Program-made: the position numbers and the translations under genes
The notes under the pieces: model-generated
What the model was told of the DNA's origin: nothing
Seen by the model: only the letters and a program-made list of their open reading frames with translations
The model's database searches: none
Shown here: positions 25,288-31,166 of the stretch, one piece after another
Layout of the letters: each line of letters opens with the position of its first letter
Numbering within the stretch: the stretch's first letter is position 1
Assembly: GCA_020831525.1 (NCBI GenBank)
Contig: JAFIGH010000055.1
Coordinates: 1-33,786, forward strand
From: Opitutales bacterium
GTDB lineage: Bacteria; Verrucomicrobiota; Verrucomicrobiia; Opitutales; Oceanipulchritudinaceae
Reading direction: 5' to 3'
Length of the DNA stretch: 33,786 nucleotides

Positions 25288-27471
25288 TCAGAACGTCCAT
25301 TCGATTCCCGCCCGCACACTTCTTCCGGGCAGGGGGGCGATGTCTTTGAGGAAGGAGGGGTGGTGGCGTGCCTCGCGGTTGAGGAGGTTTTCGCCGCGGA
25401 GGATGAAGCGGAAGTCGGAGCTGCCCGTCGCCAAGGGGATGCTGAGGCCGGCATTGAGGAAGGTGTAGGCGGGGGTCGGGGCTTGGTGGGCGAGGGTGCC
25501 GAAGACGGAGTCGGGCACGCGGTTTTGCGCGAAGGCGCGGCGTGTTTCGAAGAAGGCGGAAAGCCACTCGGTCTCGGCGGCGAGGCGGGCGGAGACGCGG
25601 GCGGGGGGAATCCGGGGCAACGGCTGGTCGCGCCCGCGGTCCTGCCCGCGCAGCAGGTCGGCGTCGACTTGCAGGTAGACGCGGCGCTCCGCTTCTGTCC
25701 ACAGGGCGAAGCGCGCCGTCCCCTCGAGTCCGTGGAAGCGGGCGGGGCTCTGCACGTGGCGGTAGGCGACGAGCCCCTCGATCTCGAAGCCCTGGTTGCG
25801 GAGGAAGATGAAGCCGTCGAAGTCGCGGACAAACGCGTTGGCCTGGAGGAGCAGGCGCTCCCCGCGGTAGAGGGCGACGACCTCGGCACTGCGCACGCGC
25901 TCTTGCCGCAGGGCGGGGTCGGGGATGCGGTAGATGCCGGTGGCTTCGTGGGGGGCTTCGATAAAAAGTTCCTCGCTGGCGGGTCCGCGGCGGCCTTCGG
26001 CGAGATGGAGGCTGACCTCTAGAGCGGGCGTGACTTGAAAGCGGAGCCCGGCCGCAGTCGAGAGTGTGGCGAATCGCCGCGAACGAAGGTCTTCGGGGAA
26101 TCCCTCCGGCGGGTCGCGCCGCGCGGCGTGGCGGATGCCGAGGTGCGCGCCGGCTTCGACCGTCCAGCGCTGCCCGACTGGTTGCTCGGCGAGGGCGAAG
26201 ACGGCGCCGCCGTGGTCGCGGCTTGTGAGGATGTCCTCGATGGGGCGGCCGAGGAAGTAGCTTGTGTTGCGGTTACGGTAATCGGCGCGGAAGGCGGAGA
26301 GACCGCCGGAGAGGAGACCGCCCGCCTGTGTCGAACGCAGGACCTCGCCCCGCGCCTCCGCTTCGGTGCGGCGGAAGGAATTGGTGAGGAAGGCGCCCTC
26401 GCGCTCGTCCTGGCGGAAGCGGGAGAATCTGCCGCGCGTGTCGAGCGTTGTCCCGTCTCCCTGCGCCGGTCGGCGCGCGACGGAGAGGACCCGCAGGTTT
26501 TCGAGGTCGATGCGCACGGGGTCGAATGCGCTGGGAGCGGTCTCGCCGGGCTCGGAAAAGGGATTTCCGTGGCTGTGTCCGTCAGTCGGGACTCCGTAGT
26601 CGGTGAAGTATCCGTTTGCGGCGGCGCCGATTTCCCATCCGCCCGCGGCTGTGAGCGCGCCGACTCCGGCGGAGCGGGCGCGCATTCCGGTGTTGGGCAC
26701 GCGGCCATGCGGGTTGGGGGCGGGGGCGGGGATGGTCGGGGGCAGGCGGATGTGGTTGGCTTCGTCGTAGGCTTCGGTGCGGGCATAGCCGGGAATCCTG
26801 TAGTCGCCGGCTTCGCGGTAGAGCGCCTGGCCGCGCACGAGCGTGGAACCCGCCGCCGCGGTGTGTTCGGCGGCGGCGAGTCTGCCATCGTTGACCGTTT
26901 CGGCTTGGGCGAGAAGGCGGGTGTGCGGGGTCGCGTCCGGCTGCGGGATCCATCCTCCGTCGATGTCGACAGCCCCGCCGATGGCCGCTCCGCCGAAGCG
27001 GAGGGCGGGTGTGCCTTTGTAGACGGTGACCCGCCGCATGAAGGCGGGGTCCATGGCGACGGCGTGGTCGGGGCTGGTGTCGGAGACATCTCCCGTGCCG
27101 AGGCGGTTCTCGAAGACGCCCACGCGGTAGCCGTCGAGCCCGCGGACGATGGGTCGGCTGGCGGCGGGCGAGTAGAAACTGGCGGTGATGCCCGGCTCCC
27201 ATGCGAGGATATCGGCGAGGGTGCCGGCGAGGCGGTCCGTGAGGTCGGCGGCCTCGATGTCGCGGGTGAGTCCGAGGGCGAGGGCGGGGCGCGGCGCGGC
27301 CTCGGCGCGGCCGCGGGCTTCGAGGGGATCGAGTTCGTGGACGTCGTCGCCGGGTTCATCTGCTGTGGCGCTGACGCACATGCAAAGCGCGCCGCAGAGA
27401 CCGAACAATAGGGCCTTCAGGCGGTTTCCGGGGGGCGCGGACGCGGTTGTTTTATTGCAAATCACTTGCAA
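25288..27471 (-). CDS. TonB-dependent receptor, ZnuD-like
   Basis: A ~725-aa outer-membrane receptor. Signal peptide LKALLFGLCGALCMCVSATA lies at ~18-37. The plug is close to the zinc receptor ZnuD: SRPIVRGLDGYRVGVFENRL, GTGDVSDTSPDHAVAMDP and RVTVYKGTPALRFGGAAIGG, followed by GAVDIDGGWIP. A 22-strand-type barrel follows, ending AGIEWTF. The exact start is uncertain: the outermost start codons (TTG 27471, GTG 27465) fall within a regulatory-looking palindrome and no ATG precedes the signal peptide, so a downstream non-ATG start is possible. It diverges from a choice-of-anchor M protein, a family repeatedly found with metal-uptake genes, supporting a zinc or other metal substrate. Confidence 0.9.
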   Translation of the reverse strand: MQVICNKTTASAPPGNRLKALLFGLCGALCMCVSATADEPGDDVHELDPLEARGRAEAAPRPALALGLTRDIEAADLTDRLAGTLADILAWEPGITASFYSPAASRPIVRGLDGYRVGVFENRLGTGDVSDTSPDHAVAMDPAFMRRVTVYKGTPALRFGGAAIGGAVDIDGGWIPQPDATPHTRLLAQAETVNDGRLAAAEHTAAAGSTLVRGQALYREAGDYRIPGYARTEAYDEANHIRLPPTIPAPAPNPHGRVPNTGMRARSAGVGALTAAGGWEIGAAANGYFTDYGVPTDGHSHGNPFSEPGETAPSAFDPVRIDLENLRVLSVARRPAQGDGTTLDTRGRFSRFRQDEREGAFLTNSFRRTEAEARGEVLRSTQAGGLLSGGLSAFRADYRNRNTSYFLGRPIEDILTSRDHGGAVFALAEQPVGQRWTVEAGAHLGIRHAARRDPPEGFPEDLRSRRFATLSTAAGLRFQVTPALEVSLHLAEGRRGPASEELFIEAPHEATGIYRIPDPALRQERVRSAEVVALYRGERLLLQANAFVRDFDGFIFLRNQGFEIEGLVAYRHVQSPARFHGLEGTARFALWTEAERRVYLQVDADLLRGQDRGRDQPLPRIPPARVSARLAAETEWLSAFFETRRAFAQNRVPDSVFGTLAHQAPTPAYTFLNAGLSIPLATGSSDFRFILRGENLLNREARHHPSFLKDIAPLPGRSVRAGIEWTF
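27455..27471. promoter_or_regulatory. candidate metal-responsive operator (Zur-like)
   Basis: TTGCAAATCACTTGCAA: two TTGCAA hexamers separated by 5 bases, 14 of 17 positions symmetrical. It sits in the divergent region between the ZnuD-like receptor and the choice-of-anchor M gene (31 bases before its ATG), placed to control both. Assignment to Zur is inference from the neighbours; the sequence does not match a classical Zur box known to me. Confidence 0.4.
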
Positions 27472-27501
27472 AAGAGAAGAAGTGGCTCACGTTCGTTTTC
27501 G

Positions 27502-28503
27502 ATGTTCCGGGTGTCAACGCAGCATTCCGTTTGCCTCCTCGCCGCGGCGTTTGCTTCCTCCGCCGCCGGCGCGACTTCGTCGTACACGGTCATCTCGTCG
27601 GGACACTACGACCTCGGTGCGCATTACGACCCGGACAGCGGTTGGCACGGCTATGTGTGGGACTTCGAAGCGCGGAAGGCTCTCGACGCGGAGCGCACCG
27701 TCCTATGGGCGGGGCCGGAGTACCGCCGCGAGGTGCCGGCCGCGAATTTCGACCGGCTGGCCGATCCCGGCAGCACCGTGTGGGTGCTGCCCGACCGCCT
27801 GCCGGACCATCTCACGTGGGACGAGTTTCTGTATCTCGGCCTCGGCACGCAACAGCAGGAGCCGGGCGTCTTCCGGGGCGGCGCAAACCAACGCGGCGAA
27901 AAGGCCATGCGGCTTGTGTCGGTGGAGGGCTCCGGGGTGGACCGCGGCGGACACTTCGCCATGTGGTATACGGAAGGCTTGGAACGTCTGATTTGGATAT
28001 TCACGACGCGCGACGGCATTGACGAAAGCGACCGCTTCGAGGAACTACGGGCGGGTTTTCACGGCCACTACAACACCGGTTTCTCGCAGCCCGGCCGCTA
28101 CGATGTGACCGTCGAATTCTACGGTGATCTGCGCGAGGCGTATGGAGGCGGCTCGACGGCGCATGAGGTGACATGGACGTTCTATGTGAGCGACGGGAGC
28201 ATGGACTGGGCGCAGGCAATCGAGGCGGACGATGGCTGGTATTACTCGCCGGCCTTCGGATGGCTCTATCCGGTGGACGACCGGTGGGTGCACAGTGCGG
28301 ACCATGGATTTTGGTATGTCCGTCCGAAAGGAAACGGTGTCGCCTACGTCTTCGACCCGCAGTGGGATTCATGGGTTTTTCACTCCGCGGACCTTCACCC
28401 GTGGGCCTACGATGCCGAACTCGGCTGGGTGACCGGGGCGGAGGCGGGCGGACGCTGGCACTTTGTCGAGGGCAACGGCTGGCGCATTCAGCAACGGTCG
28501 TGA
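27502..28503 (+). CDS. choice-of-anchor M domain protein with Trp-rich C-terminus
   Basis: A 333-aa secreted protein. The ATG at 27502 gives a clean signal peptide ([24 protein letters not shown]). An in-frame TTG at 27466 lies inside the palindrome and is disfavoured. Residues ~29-218 match the surface-anchored-protein/choice-of-anchor M pattern: [35 protein letters not shown] and [21 protein letters not shown]. Residues ~225-333 hold repeated W-x-Y/F motifs ([41 protein letters not shown]), a C-terminal module common in this lineage and probably cell-surface-associated. In actinobacteria the domain accompanies Zn/Mn uptake systems; here it faces a ZnuD-like receptor. Its molecular function is unknown. 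Confidence 0.8.
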
Positions 28504-28599: not shown

Positions 28600-29746
28600 A
28601 TGGCAGTCGAACCCGAAACCCGTAACCAGATCGAAGAAATCGCGAAGCGCGCCGGATACCTCTGGAGGTATCTTTGACGTCCCGGCCAAGCAGAAAGAGA
28701 TCGGCGCGCACGAGGCGCGCATGGGCGAACCCGGATTTTGGGACAAGTCCGACGGCGCCCAAGCCACGGCAACCAAGCTCAGCCAGCTGAAGGGCGTGGT
28801 CGGGCCGGTCATGGAGTTCAACCGCAAGCTGGACGACGTCAAGACGCTGCTCGAGCTTGTCGACGACGCGGACGCGGACGAAGCCGACGCCTACGTCGCG
28901 GAGATCACCGACGCGGTGAAGGACCTCCGCTCGCGCTTGGACAAGCTGGAGCTGCAGAGCTTTCTCAGCGGCAAGATGGACCGCAACAACGCCATCCTCA
29001 GCGTCAACGCGGGGGCGGGCGGCACGGAGTCCTGCGACTGGGCGGATATGCTCCTGCGCATGTACACGCGCTGGGCGGAGTCCAATGGCTTTGAGGTCGA
29101 GGTGCAGGATATCGCGCCCGGCGACGAGGCAGGCATCTCCAGCGCGACCATCCGCATCATCGGTCCCAACGCCTACGGCTACGCCAAGGCCGAGCGCGGC
29201 GTCCACCGGCTCGTGCGGATCAGCCCGTTTGATTCCAACGCGCGCCGTCACACCTCCTTCAGCGCCGTTGATGTCATCGCCGAGGTCGACGACGACGTCG
29301 CGGTGGAGATCAACGAAAAGGACCTGCGCGTCGACACCTACCGCTCCTCCGGCAAGGGCGGGCAGCACGTCAACAAAACCGACTCGGCCGTGCGCCTGAC
29401 GCACTTGCCCACGGGCATCGTCGTGGCTTGCCAGAAAGAGCGTTCCCAGCACAAAAACCGTGCCGAGGCCATGCGCATCCTCAAGAGCCGCGTCTATGAA
29501 AAGATGGAAGACGAGAAGCGCGCCGAGATGGAACGCTTTTATGGAGAAAAAGGGGAGATCGGCTGGGGCAACCAGATCCGCTCCTACGTCTTCCAGCCCT
29601 ACCAGATGGTCAAGGACCTGCGTACGGGCGTGGACACCGGCAACGTCCAGGCCGTCATGGACGGCGACCTCGACCGCTTCATCCACGCATGGCTGCGCGC
29701 GGGCTGCCCGCGCACGCGCAACAAAGATATCAAAATGGATGATTGA
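28600..29746 (+). CDS. prfB: peptide chain release factor 2 (programmed +1 frameshift)
   Basis: RF2 recognises UGA/UAA and releases the nascent protein. The first 25 codons from ATG 28600 ([25 protein letters not shown]) end at an in-frame TGA (28675-28677). A +1 shift at CTT-T yields [20 protein letters not shown] and the rest, 381 aa in all. The stop-recognition tripeptide SPF is at 208-210 ([15 protein letters not shown]) and the catalytic GGQ at 253-255 ([10 protein letters not shown]). The frameshift autoregulates RF2: low RF2 slows termination at TGA and favours the shift. The stop overlaps the next gene by 8 bases. The zero-frame open frame starting at 28463 upstream is not the real N-terminus. 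Confidence 0.97.
28664..28678 (+). other. prfB: RF2 programmed frameshift signal
   Basis: GGAGG (28664-28668), a 3-base spacer, then CTT-TGA-C (28672-28678). This is the classical arrangement of an internal Shine-Dalgarno sequence, slippery CUU codon and UGA stop followed by C, which promotes +1 frameshifting in bacterial prfB. Confidence 0.97.
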
Positions 29747-31166
29747 CGCGCGCGCCGAGTCCACCGCCCCGGAGCTTTCGCTCGAAGCCCTTCGGGAGGC
29801 CTTTGACAACCAGGCGTTGTTTGAGAACAAGACGTGGCGCCTGTCGCCCGGGGCATGGCCGCTCACCGAAGCCGAGGTGGAGACCGTCCGTGAAATCGGG
29901 CGCGCCTGCCTTGAGTTCCACCGCGCCATGGAACTGCTCTACACGCGTTCGCGCGAGGGCCGCAACCTCCTCCGCAACCGCAATCTCGAAGCGCCGTGGG
30001 TCGCGGAATACCTCGACCGCGGCAAGCCCGAAGGCCTCCGCCGCCACGCCGCCGCCAAAGCCGTGCGCGGCAGCCACCCCGTCGTCATCCGCCCGGATCT
30101 CCTCGTCACCGAGCATGGCTTCGCCCTCACCGAAATCGACTCCGTGCCCGGGGGAATCGGGCTCACCGCCTACCTCAACCGTCTCTACGGCGGGCAGGCG
30201 GGCATCGTCGGCGCGGGCGACGCTATGATCGAGCGGTTCGCGGCGAGCCTTGCCGCCCTGCGCCCCGACAAGGCAGACCCCTCCATCGGCATCGCCGTCT
30301 CGCAGGAGGCCGCCACCTACCGCCCGGAAATGCAGTGGATGGCGGACGAACTCGCCGCGCGCGGGCACCGCGCCCACTGCCTCGATCCCGACGAACTCAT
30401 GACGCTCGGGGACTCGCTTTGCGCCGATGTCAAAGGCAATCCCGAGGAGATCGACGTGCTCTACCGTTTTTGGGAGCTGTTTGACCACCCGAACCTCTCC
30501 GTCGCGCCCCACCTCATGGAGCTTCTGGAGGGCGGTGCTCCCTTCGTCGTGACGCCGCCGATGCGGCACTTCCAGGAAGAGAAACTCGCCCTTGCTCTCT
30601 TCCACCACCACCTCCTCGGCGACTTTTGGCGGGAGAACCTGAGCAAGCGCTCACACCGCCTCCTCAATCGCATCGTGCCGCGCGGCTGGATCATGGATCC
30701 CGTCTCACTTCCGCCCAACGCTGTCCTCGACGCCCCCCACGTGGGCGGCGGACCGATCTGGTGCTGGGAACAGCTCATCGACGCCTCGCAGCGCGAGCGC
30801 AACCTCATTCTCAAGCTCTCCGGATTTCACGAAAACGCGTGGGGGGCGCGCAGCGTCCTCCTCGGCAGCGACGCCTCGCGCGACGAGTGGGCGGAGGGCA
30901 TCGCGGAGGCCATCGAAAGCGCCCCCGACAACCTCTACATCCTTCAGGAATACCGCAAACCGCGCCGCCTGCGCCACCCCGTCTACGGCGAGGACGGCGG
31001 CCTGCGGCCTATGGAAGGGCGCCTCCGGCTGTGCCCCTACTACTTCGTTGAGGGCGATGAGGCGGAGCTGGCCGGAATTCTCGCCACTTTCTGCCCCGCC
31101 GACAAAAAAATCATCCACGGCATGCGCGACGCCGCTCTGCTGCCCTGCCGCGTGCGCGGGGAGTGA
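29739..31166 (+). CDS. uncharacterised protein, ATP-grasp-like
   Basis: A 475-aa cytoplasmic protein starting at ATG 29739 inside the end of prfB. The frame is open earlier but that part is the prfB shadow. Segments such as [20 protein letters not shown] followed by [13 protein letters not shown] resemble the acidic metal/ATP site region of glutathionylspermidine-synthase-like ATP-grasp proteins, and [20 protein letters not shown] and [13 protein letters not shown] would be the ATP-binding lysine and QEY strands. The assignment is tentative; the substrate is unknown. Coupling to prfB is by overlap only and does not prove a translation role. A GC hairpin follows the stop. Confidence 0.7.

What the first reader, a model, noticed from the sequence alone, without database searches (positions are those of the whole stretch)
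25288..28503. ZnuD-like receptor divergent from a choice-of-anchor M protein across a TTGCAA-N5-TTGCAA box
Anchor-M proteins accompany Zn/Mn uptake genes in other phyla. Here one faces a receptor with ZnuD-like plug sequences, sharing a compact divergent region with a symmetric 17-base box. This suggests a metal-regulated pair in which the anchor-M protein may act as a surface or periplasmic metal carrier.
Basis: partly seen in the sequence, partly recalled or inferred. Interest (0 to 1): 0.5.

Follow-up and report, generated by a model that had tools for sequence, protein, structure and literature searches.

The report
Zinc-type gene pair, one switch
A bacterium carries a zinc-type outer-membrane receptor gene back to back with a gene for an exported surface protein, over one short DNA switch that related bacteria also place before other zinc-uptake genes, so the pair is probably turned on together when zinc is scarce.

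Summary
A ZnuD-like receptor (minus) and a choice-of-anchor M protein (plus) diverge from a perfect TTGCAA-N5-TTGCAA box. The genome has 4 exact boxes: two in a repeated hairpin element, two at the only two anchor-M loci. The second locus holds two more anchor-M genes, a fused MFS/spermidine-synthase-like gene and a Fur-family gene; in two other genera both loci form one cluster. The four zinc ligands of meningococcal ZnuD align with D135, H136, E356 and H508. Box-only searches of 384 class genomes gave 30 sites; 18 (own locus included) lie at the start of ZIP-Fur operons, znuA, ZnuD-like, anchor-M or Fur genes, and a ZigA zinc-chaperone gene found separately also has a box. The box thus looks like a zinc (Zur-type) operator, although it equals the published Streptomyces nickel Nur box. 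Against: own znuABC lacks it, the G016 pair lacks it, 12 of 30 class sites are not at such genes, and the Fur proteins score nearer iron Fur than Zur. Most likely: anchor-M proteins catch zinc and the receptor imports it, under zinc repression. Repressor binding, zinc binding by anchor-M and hand-over are inferred; nothing was tested at the bench.

The parts
25288..27471 (-). ZnuD-like TonB-dependent receptor (727 aa from the TTG at 27471; start uncertain, GTG at 27465 also possible, both inside the box)
   Evidence: Pfam Plug and TonB barrel; NF038289 best NCBIfam match; best PDB match 4rdr ZnuD, E 5.9e-37; D135, H136, E356, H508 align with the four ZnuD zinc ligands and are invariant in six-sequence alignment A2
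27455..27471 (.). 17-base palindromic box TTGCAA-ATCAC-TTGCAA, proposed Zur-type operator shared by both genes
   Evidence: block conserved in G009, G010 and G002
27502..28503 (+). choice-of-anchor M protein (333 aa), exported by its N-terminal hydrophobic helix (read by eye); modelled beta-sandwich domain about residues 29-235, low-confidence C-terminal part
   Evidence: NF038134 over its cut-off; model m8f70b9b88468; H187 and H189 invariant, H35 nearly invariant among 18 sequences

Best explanation
The divergent pair is one half of a small zinc-starvation regulon. A Fur-family repressor (Fur8, encoded at the second box locus on contig C8) binds the TTGCAA-N5-TTGCAA box when loaded with zinc and blocks both genes. 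When zinc is scarce it lets go. The anchor-M proteins are exported and capture zinc at or outside the cell surface, and the ZnuD-like receptor takes zinc into the periplasm through the four-residue site of ZnuD. The C8 locus, with two further anchor-M proteins and a membrane MFS/spermidine-synthase-like protein, answers the same signal. Shown from sequence: the genes, the box, its exact copies in the genus (5 of 7 at anchor-M loci, the other 2 in a repeated element), its presence at zinc-type genes in the class, and the zinc ligands. Inferred: repressor binding, zinc as effector, zinc binding by anchor-M, hand-over to the receptor.
For: (1) The ZnuD zinc ligands Asp-99, His-100, Glu-340, His-499 (PMC4557270) align with D135, H136, E356, H508, invariant in A2 (A2 holds the receptors of 6 of the 7 pairs, G004 left out). 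(2) Receptor and anchor-M are divergent neighbours in 7 of the 8 family genomes with anchor-M (8 of 17 have it); the box between them has at most 1 mismatch in 5 of 7. (3) The second box locus has two anchor-M genes, MFS-SpdSyn and Fur in all 3 species of the genus held, with two boxes in tandem there and in G002, and is joined to the first locus in G002 and G003. (4) Box-only retrieval over 384 class genomes: 16 sites (control 2) and 24 sites (control 3), 30 distinct. 17 by profile search, 18 with a ZIP found by Pfam (L160), lie at the 5' end of a ZIP, ZnuA, ZnuD, anchor-M/MFS-SpdSyn or Fur gene. (5) Boxes precede two COG0523 genes in L100, one a ZigA zinc chaperone at 608.5 of 600 bits. (6) Of the genome's five Fur-family proteins Fur8 is closest to a profile of three ZIP-linked Fur proteins: 81.7 bits against 36.3, 30.7, 21.1 and no hit. 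(7) In Corynebacterium diphtheriae the anchored-repeat transporter genes and neighbouring surface-protein genes are zinc- and Zur-regulated (PMC6711530, passages).
Against: The genome's znuABC (C132), second ZnuA (C42) and best COG0523 gene (C60) have no box upstream in the stretches held. The G016 pair has none within 2 mismatches. No Fur gene was found in the 26 kb read around the G002 cluster. 12 of 30 class sites are not at such genes, and only 5 of 13 exact sites in the family are at anchor-M loci. The 18 sites are not independent: one is the own C8 locus, five are from one genus (g54), and two further pairs share a genus. The class patterns ask for more symmetry than the window's own box has and do not match it. 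NCBIfam scores Fur8 higher as iron Fur (65.5) than Zur (40.1), and the ZIP-linked Fur proteins tested as iron Fur at 106-109 against Zur at about 32, all below cut-off. NCBIfam named no family for three ZIPs tested and ZupT below cut-off for the fourth (46.4 of 252), so ZIP does not prove zinc. The box equals the Nur-box consensus. No sigma-70-type promoter was found in 27300-27650. The anchor-M C-terminal part has no confident model.
Confidence: 0.7

Rival explanations
1. The box is a nickel (Nur-type) operator and the pair serves nickel uptake: the Fur-family protein responds to nickel and the receptor carries nickel or a nickel complex.
For: [quoted passage not shown] 3eyy, which I recall to be Nur, is among the PDB relatives of Fur8 (55.6 bits).
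Against: In the class the box precedes ZIP, ZnuA, ZigA and ZnuD-like genes; the receptor keeps the ZnuD zinc ligands. Fur8 scores 69.6 bits with M. tuberculosis Zur, though an iron Fur scores 69.5.
Confidence: 0.1
2. The pair and box respond to iron or haem (Fur box, haem-type receptor), and the zinc look of the receptor is residual.
For: The receptor also matches haem receptor models at 82.8-83.7 bits; Fur8 and the ZIP-linked Fur proteins tested score higher as iron Fur than as Zur in NCBIfam.
Against: ZnuD model 155.3 bits; Asp and Glu of the zinc site kept as well as both His; ZnuA, ZigA and ZnuD-like genes under the same box in relatives.
Confidence: 0.12
3. The genes are zinc genes, but the box is bound by another regulator or is only a conserved promoter element, and the anchor-M protein is a structural surface protein without metal.
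For: The box overlaps the possible receptor start codons; 12 of 30 class sites are not at such genes; box absent from own znuABC.
Against: Tandem boxes at the second locus in three species and G002, Fur genes recurring in the box operons, HxH invariant.
Confidence: 0.15

Closest known systems
ZnuD of Neisseria meningitidis (zinc TonB-dependent receptor under Zur; PMC4557270)
   Same: Plug and barrel, the four zinc ligands conserved; best PDB match
   Different: Far below the NCBIfam ZnuD cut-off (155.3 of 950); head to head with an anchor-M gene over a shared box
Actinobacterial anchored-repeat ABC transporter clusters (C. diphtheriae troA-dip0445, zinc- and Zur-regulated; PMC6711530)
   Same: Anchor-M-type domains (TIGR03773, TIGR03772, TIGR03769 also hit) in zinc-regulated gene groups
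   Different: Here the anchor-M genes sit with an outer-membrane receptor, an MFS/SpdSyn protein and Fur, not with an ABC transporter
ZepA, Zur-regulated PEP-CTERM zinc exoprotein of Anabaena with TonB receptors, COG0523, ZupT and FUR genes nearby (PMC10957091)
   Same: Exported, sandwich fold, His-based site proposed, neighbours of the same kinds, homologues also in the PVC group
   Different: The ZepA motif H-X2-9-H-F/Y-H is absent from the window protein by eye; the family is NF038134; divergent ZnuD-like partner
Nur box of Streptomyces (tTGCaa-N5-ttGCAA; PMC3919588)
   Same: Identical consensus and spacing
   Different: Published for a nickel regulator; here found at zinc-type genes

Membership tests
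ZnuD-type zinc receptors | Plug and beta-barrel of a TonB-dependent receptor | tested here: met
   PF07715 47.6 bits, PF00593 89.2 bits
ZnuD-type zinc receptors | High-affinity site Asp-99, His-100, Glu-340, His-499 | tested here: met
   D135, H136, E356, H508 by the alignment (chain offset 14, counted by hand); invariant in A2
ZnuD-type zinc receptors | NCBIfam NF038289 curated cut-off (kind 'exception') | tested here: not met
   155.3 of 950 bits; hence called ZnuD-like, not ZnuD
ZnuD-type zinc receptors | Zinc transport and zinc repression | not testable with these tools
   needs a bench test
choice-of-anchor M (NF038134) | Domain score over the curated cut-off | tested here: met
   59.3 of 55 bits; of the two on C8, 90.9 met and 28 not met
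Actinobacterial anchored-repeat ABC transporter system | ABC transporter genes in the same cluster | tested here: not met
   Anchor-M only on C8 and C116, ZnuA family only on C42 and C132; no ZnuA, ZnuB or ZnuC match in the 19 kb read around C8
ZepA | Motif H-X2-9-H-F/Y-H | tested here: not met
   No H-F/Y-H in the window protein printed (read by eye)
Zur regulon member | Zur-type box at the promoter, shared with other zinc genes | tested here: inconclusive
   18 of 30 class sites, but not at this genome's own znuABC
Zur regulon member | Zur binds the box; zinc-dependent expression | not testable with these tools
   gel shift and transcript test needed
Nur regulon member | Box consensus tTGCaa-N5-ttGCAA | tested here: met
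Nur regulon member | Nickel-sensing Fur-family protein as regulator | tested here: inconclusive
   Fur8: M. tuberculosis Zur 69.6, an iron Fur 69.5, 3eyy (recalled as Nur) 55.6 bits; the metal cannot be read from sequence

The most novel reading that the evidence does not exclude
Choice-of-anchor M proteins are a widespread class of extracellular zinc-catching proteins in Gram-negative bacteria. They work with ZnuD-like receptors and with an MFS/aminopropyltransferase-like membrane protein that makes or exports a zinc ligand, under a Fur-family zinc repressor whose operator is letter for letter the Nur box. Parts of the set occur in Verrucomicrobia, Kiritimatiellae, Planctomycetes and Myxococcales.
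Probability: 0.3. Interest if true: 0.75.

Novelty: new variant of a known kind. Interest (0 to 1): 0.55.

Why it matters
It offers a concrete candidate operator for zinc control in this class and ties choice-of-anchor M proteins in Gram-negative bacteria to zinc through a receptor with a conserved zinc site. One earlier report names a single palindrome before zepA in Luteolibacter yonseiensis (PMC10957091); its letters are in a figure I could not see, so it may or may not be the same box. The case also shows that a consensus published as a nickel box can mark zinc-type genes elsewhere, a warning for regulon annotation. The recurring MFS/spermidine-synthase-like neighbour is an untested candidate part of zinc acquisition.

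Tried and rejected
Nur reading: considered because of the identical consensus; set back after the box was found at ZIP, ZnuA, ZigA and ZnuD-like genes. Boxes at C12 and C105: not taken as regulatory, since they lie in a repeated element where the box is part of a longer hairpin. One-mismatch sites: C57 lies inside an ORF that I name coaE by eye, also in G010; C91 inside an ABC ATPase ORF; C63 lies between ORFs that were not identified and C171 outside any called ORF. The one-mismatch sites G009 C19, C134, C178 and C546 and G010 C243 and C333 were not looked at. C60 COG0523 gene: no box within 2 mismatches in the stretch held. PDB search with the anchor-M profile: nothing at E 0.1. Fold search with the anchor-M model: no Foldseek match at E 0.001; VIA-align best Z 6.5, arginine deiminases, fimbrial lectin domains and a multicopper oxidase, which may mean only a common sandwich arrangement. 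Plasmid search with the anchor-M protein: no match. Whether H35, H187 and H189 meet in the model could not be measured, as no coordinates were returned.

Papers. Searches were. None of the listings showed an anchor-M/ZnuD pair or TTGCAA boxes at zinc genes (TTGCAA with Zur and zinc: two unrelated papers; none); the library lacks most subscription journals. PMC3919588, PMC6711530, PMC4557270 and PMC6103462 were seen as listing and passages; PMC10957091 as abstract, passages and sections 10, 12, 13 and 18; the rest as listing only.

Full report
Observation. The receptor ORF (25288-27471, minus), the anchor-M ORF (to 28503, plus) and the box TTGCAAATCACTTGCAA (27455-27471) are present. The anchor-M gene starts at the conserved ATG 27502. 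The receptor's TTG and GTG start candidates lie inside the box. One of 100 shuffles of the window held such a box. The genome holds 4 exact boxes and 0 of the reversed control.

The four boxes. C12 and C105 lie in one repeated element in which the box is part of a longer hairpin. The other two are this one and C8:22067; C8 has a second box with two mismatches 34 bases on. The C8 boxes lie between a 267-aa anchor-M gene and a minus-strand run of an 828-aa MFS/spermidine-synthase-like gene, a 386-aa anchor-M gene and a 154-aa Fur-family gene. The genome has 3 anchor-M matches, two on C8 and one on C116. With up to one mismatch the genome holds 8 sites against 2 for the control. Of the four extra ones C57 and C91 lie inside ORFs; C63 and C171 were not tied to a zinc gene. 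In the three species of the genus there are 7 exact boxes, 5 at anchor-M loci and 2 in the repeated element.

Relatives in the family. Anchor-M occurs in 8 of 17 family genomes. In 7 of these 8 a ZnuD-like gene stands divergent to an anchor-M gene: own, G009, G010, G002, G003, G004 and G016. The box between them is exact in own and G009, has one mismatch in G010, G002 and G004, is a weaker palindrome in G003 (read by eye), and is absent within two mismatches in G016. In the eighth, G006, no ZnuD-like match lies in the 7 kb read. In G002 and G003 the two loci are one cluster. Fur lies in the second cluster in own, G009 and G010 but was not found in the G002 stretches. Exact boxes in the family number 13 in 7 of 17 genomes; 5 are at anchor-M loci, 8 are not.

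Receptor. NF038289 ZnuD is the best NCBIfam family at 155.3 bits, below its cut-off of 950; haem receptor models score 82.8-83.7. The best PDB entry is ZnuD 4rdr, E 5.9e-37. [quoted passage not shown] In the alignment these fall on D135, H136, E356 and H508 (chain offset 14, counted by hand). All four are invariant in the alignment of six receptors, which includes G003 (34% identity) and G016 (29%) but not G004.

Anchor-M protein. NF038134 scores 59.3 over a cut-off of 55. In an alignment of the window protein with 17 of 43 anchor-M ORFs, H187 and H189 are invariant and H35 nearly so. The model has mean pLDDT 73; the ten-residue blocks from 31 to 230 average 75-97 and most of the rest after 237 is under 50. 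No Foldseek match reached E 0.001; the best VIA-align row has Z 6.5.

What the box marks elsewhere. Two box-only searches of the same 384 class genomes gave 16 sites in 13 genomes (control pattern 2) and 24 sites in 21 genomes (control 3). Together they are 30 distinct sites. The two patterns are more symmetric than the window's own box and do not match it. By profile search 17 of 30 lie at the 5' end of a ZIP, ZnuA, ZnuD, anchor-M/MFS-SpdSyn or Fur gene. An eighteenth, L160, is at a ZIP gene by Pfam. The 18 are ten ZIP-Fur operons, two znuA, two ZnuD-like, two Fur, one anchor-M, and the own C8 locus. The ZIP profile was built from four of these loci and the anchor-M and MFS-SpdSyn profiles include the own locus, so those match by construction; Pfam confirmed ZIP in the five tested (L133, L139, L153, L160, L169) and ZnuA in both. 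Five of the ZIP-Fur genomes are one genus. Twelve sites are not at such genes; one of these, L165, lies about 500 bases before a ZnuD-like gene and was not counted. Apart from these searches, L100, a Verrucomicrobiales MAG, has boxes before a COG0523 gene followed by MFS-SpdSyn and anchor-M, and before a ZigA gene (608.5 of 600 bits). G016 has a ZigA gene (620 of 600 bits) next to its ZnuD-like gene.

Companion protein. Of 40 loci found with the MFS-SpdSyn alignment, 25 hold an anchor-M match at E below 1e-10 and 23 have it within 500 bases; flanks were short in many of the 40. The 25 include Verrucomicrobia, Kiritimatiellae, Planctomycetes such as Rubripirellula obstinata, and Myxococcales; in one Myxococcales MAG the order is anchor-M, anchor-M, MFS-SpdSyn, ZnuD-like, Fur. 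The query was chosen from anchor-M clusters, so this share is not a census.

Regulator. Fur8 is the closest of the genome's five Fur-family proteins to a profile of three ZIP-linked Fur proteins (81.7 bits; then 36.3, 30.7, 21.1 and no hit). NCBIfam puts Fur8 nearer iron Fur (65.5) than Zur (40.1), and two ZIP-linked Fur proteins at 106.3 and 109.3 for a Bacillus-type iron Fur model against 32.5 and 31.8 for Zur, all under the cut-offs. phmmer gives Fur8 69.6 bits with M. tuberculosis Zur, 69.5 with 2w57 (a ferric uptake regulator) and 55.6 with 3eyy, recalled as Nur. Sequence alone does not fix the metal; the neighbourhoods point to zinc.

Nickel, iron or zinc. [quoted passage not shown] ZIP alone does not prove zinc; ZnuA, ZigA and the ZnuD-like receptors argue for it. 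The genome's own znuABC has no box, so the regulon here is small or znuABC is controlled otherwise.

Known relatives. C. diphtheriae anchored-repeat genes are zinc- and Zur-regulated (PMC6711530, passages). ZepA is a Zur-regulated zinc exoprotein with similar neighbours, with homologues in the PVC group and one palindrome reported before zepA in Luteolibacter yonseiensis (PMC10957091). The present system shares the logic but uses another protein family and a ZnuD-like partner. I found no description of it in the searches.

Noticed in passing
window 28600-29746 (+): prfB (release factor 2) after the anchor-M gene: ATG at 28600, in-frame TGA at 28675 in the context AGGTATCTTTGAC, and the rest in another frame, which looks like the classical programmed frameshift (motif recalled).
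   Followed up: no
G000:C12:5033 and G000:C105:5135 (loci L022, L023): Two contigs share a repeated element with a hairpin that contains the TTGCAA-N5-TTGCAA string.
   Followed up: partly
L133, L139, L140, L153, L154, L157, L169: In these Verrucomicrobiae loci an L33 gene, an S18 gene, the box, a ZIP gene and a Fur-family gene follow one another; the L33 copies printed have a single Cys and may be the zinc-free type (L33 confirmed for L139).
   Followed up: partly
L021 7550-10036 (-), and loci L092-L131: A fused MFS/spermidine-synthase-like protein is a recurrent neighbour of anchor-M genes in several phyla; function unknown.
   Followed up: partly
window 29739-31166 (+): ORF of 475 aa after prfB, with like-sized counterparts in the same place in G009 and G010, not identified.
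   Followed up: no
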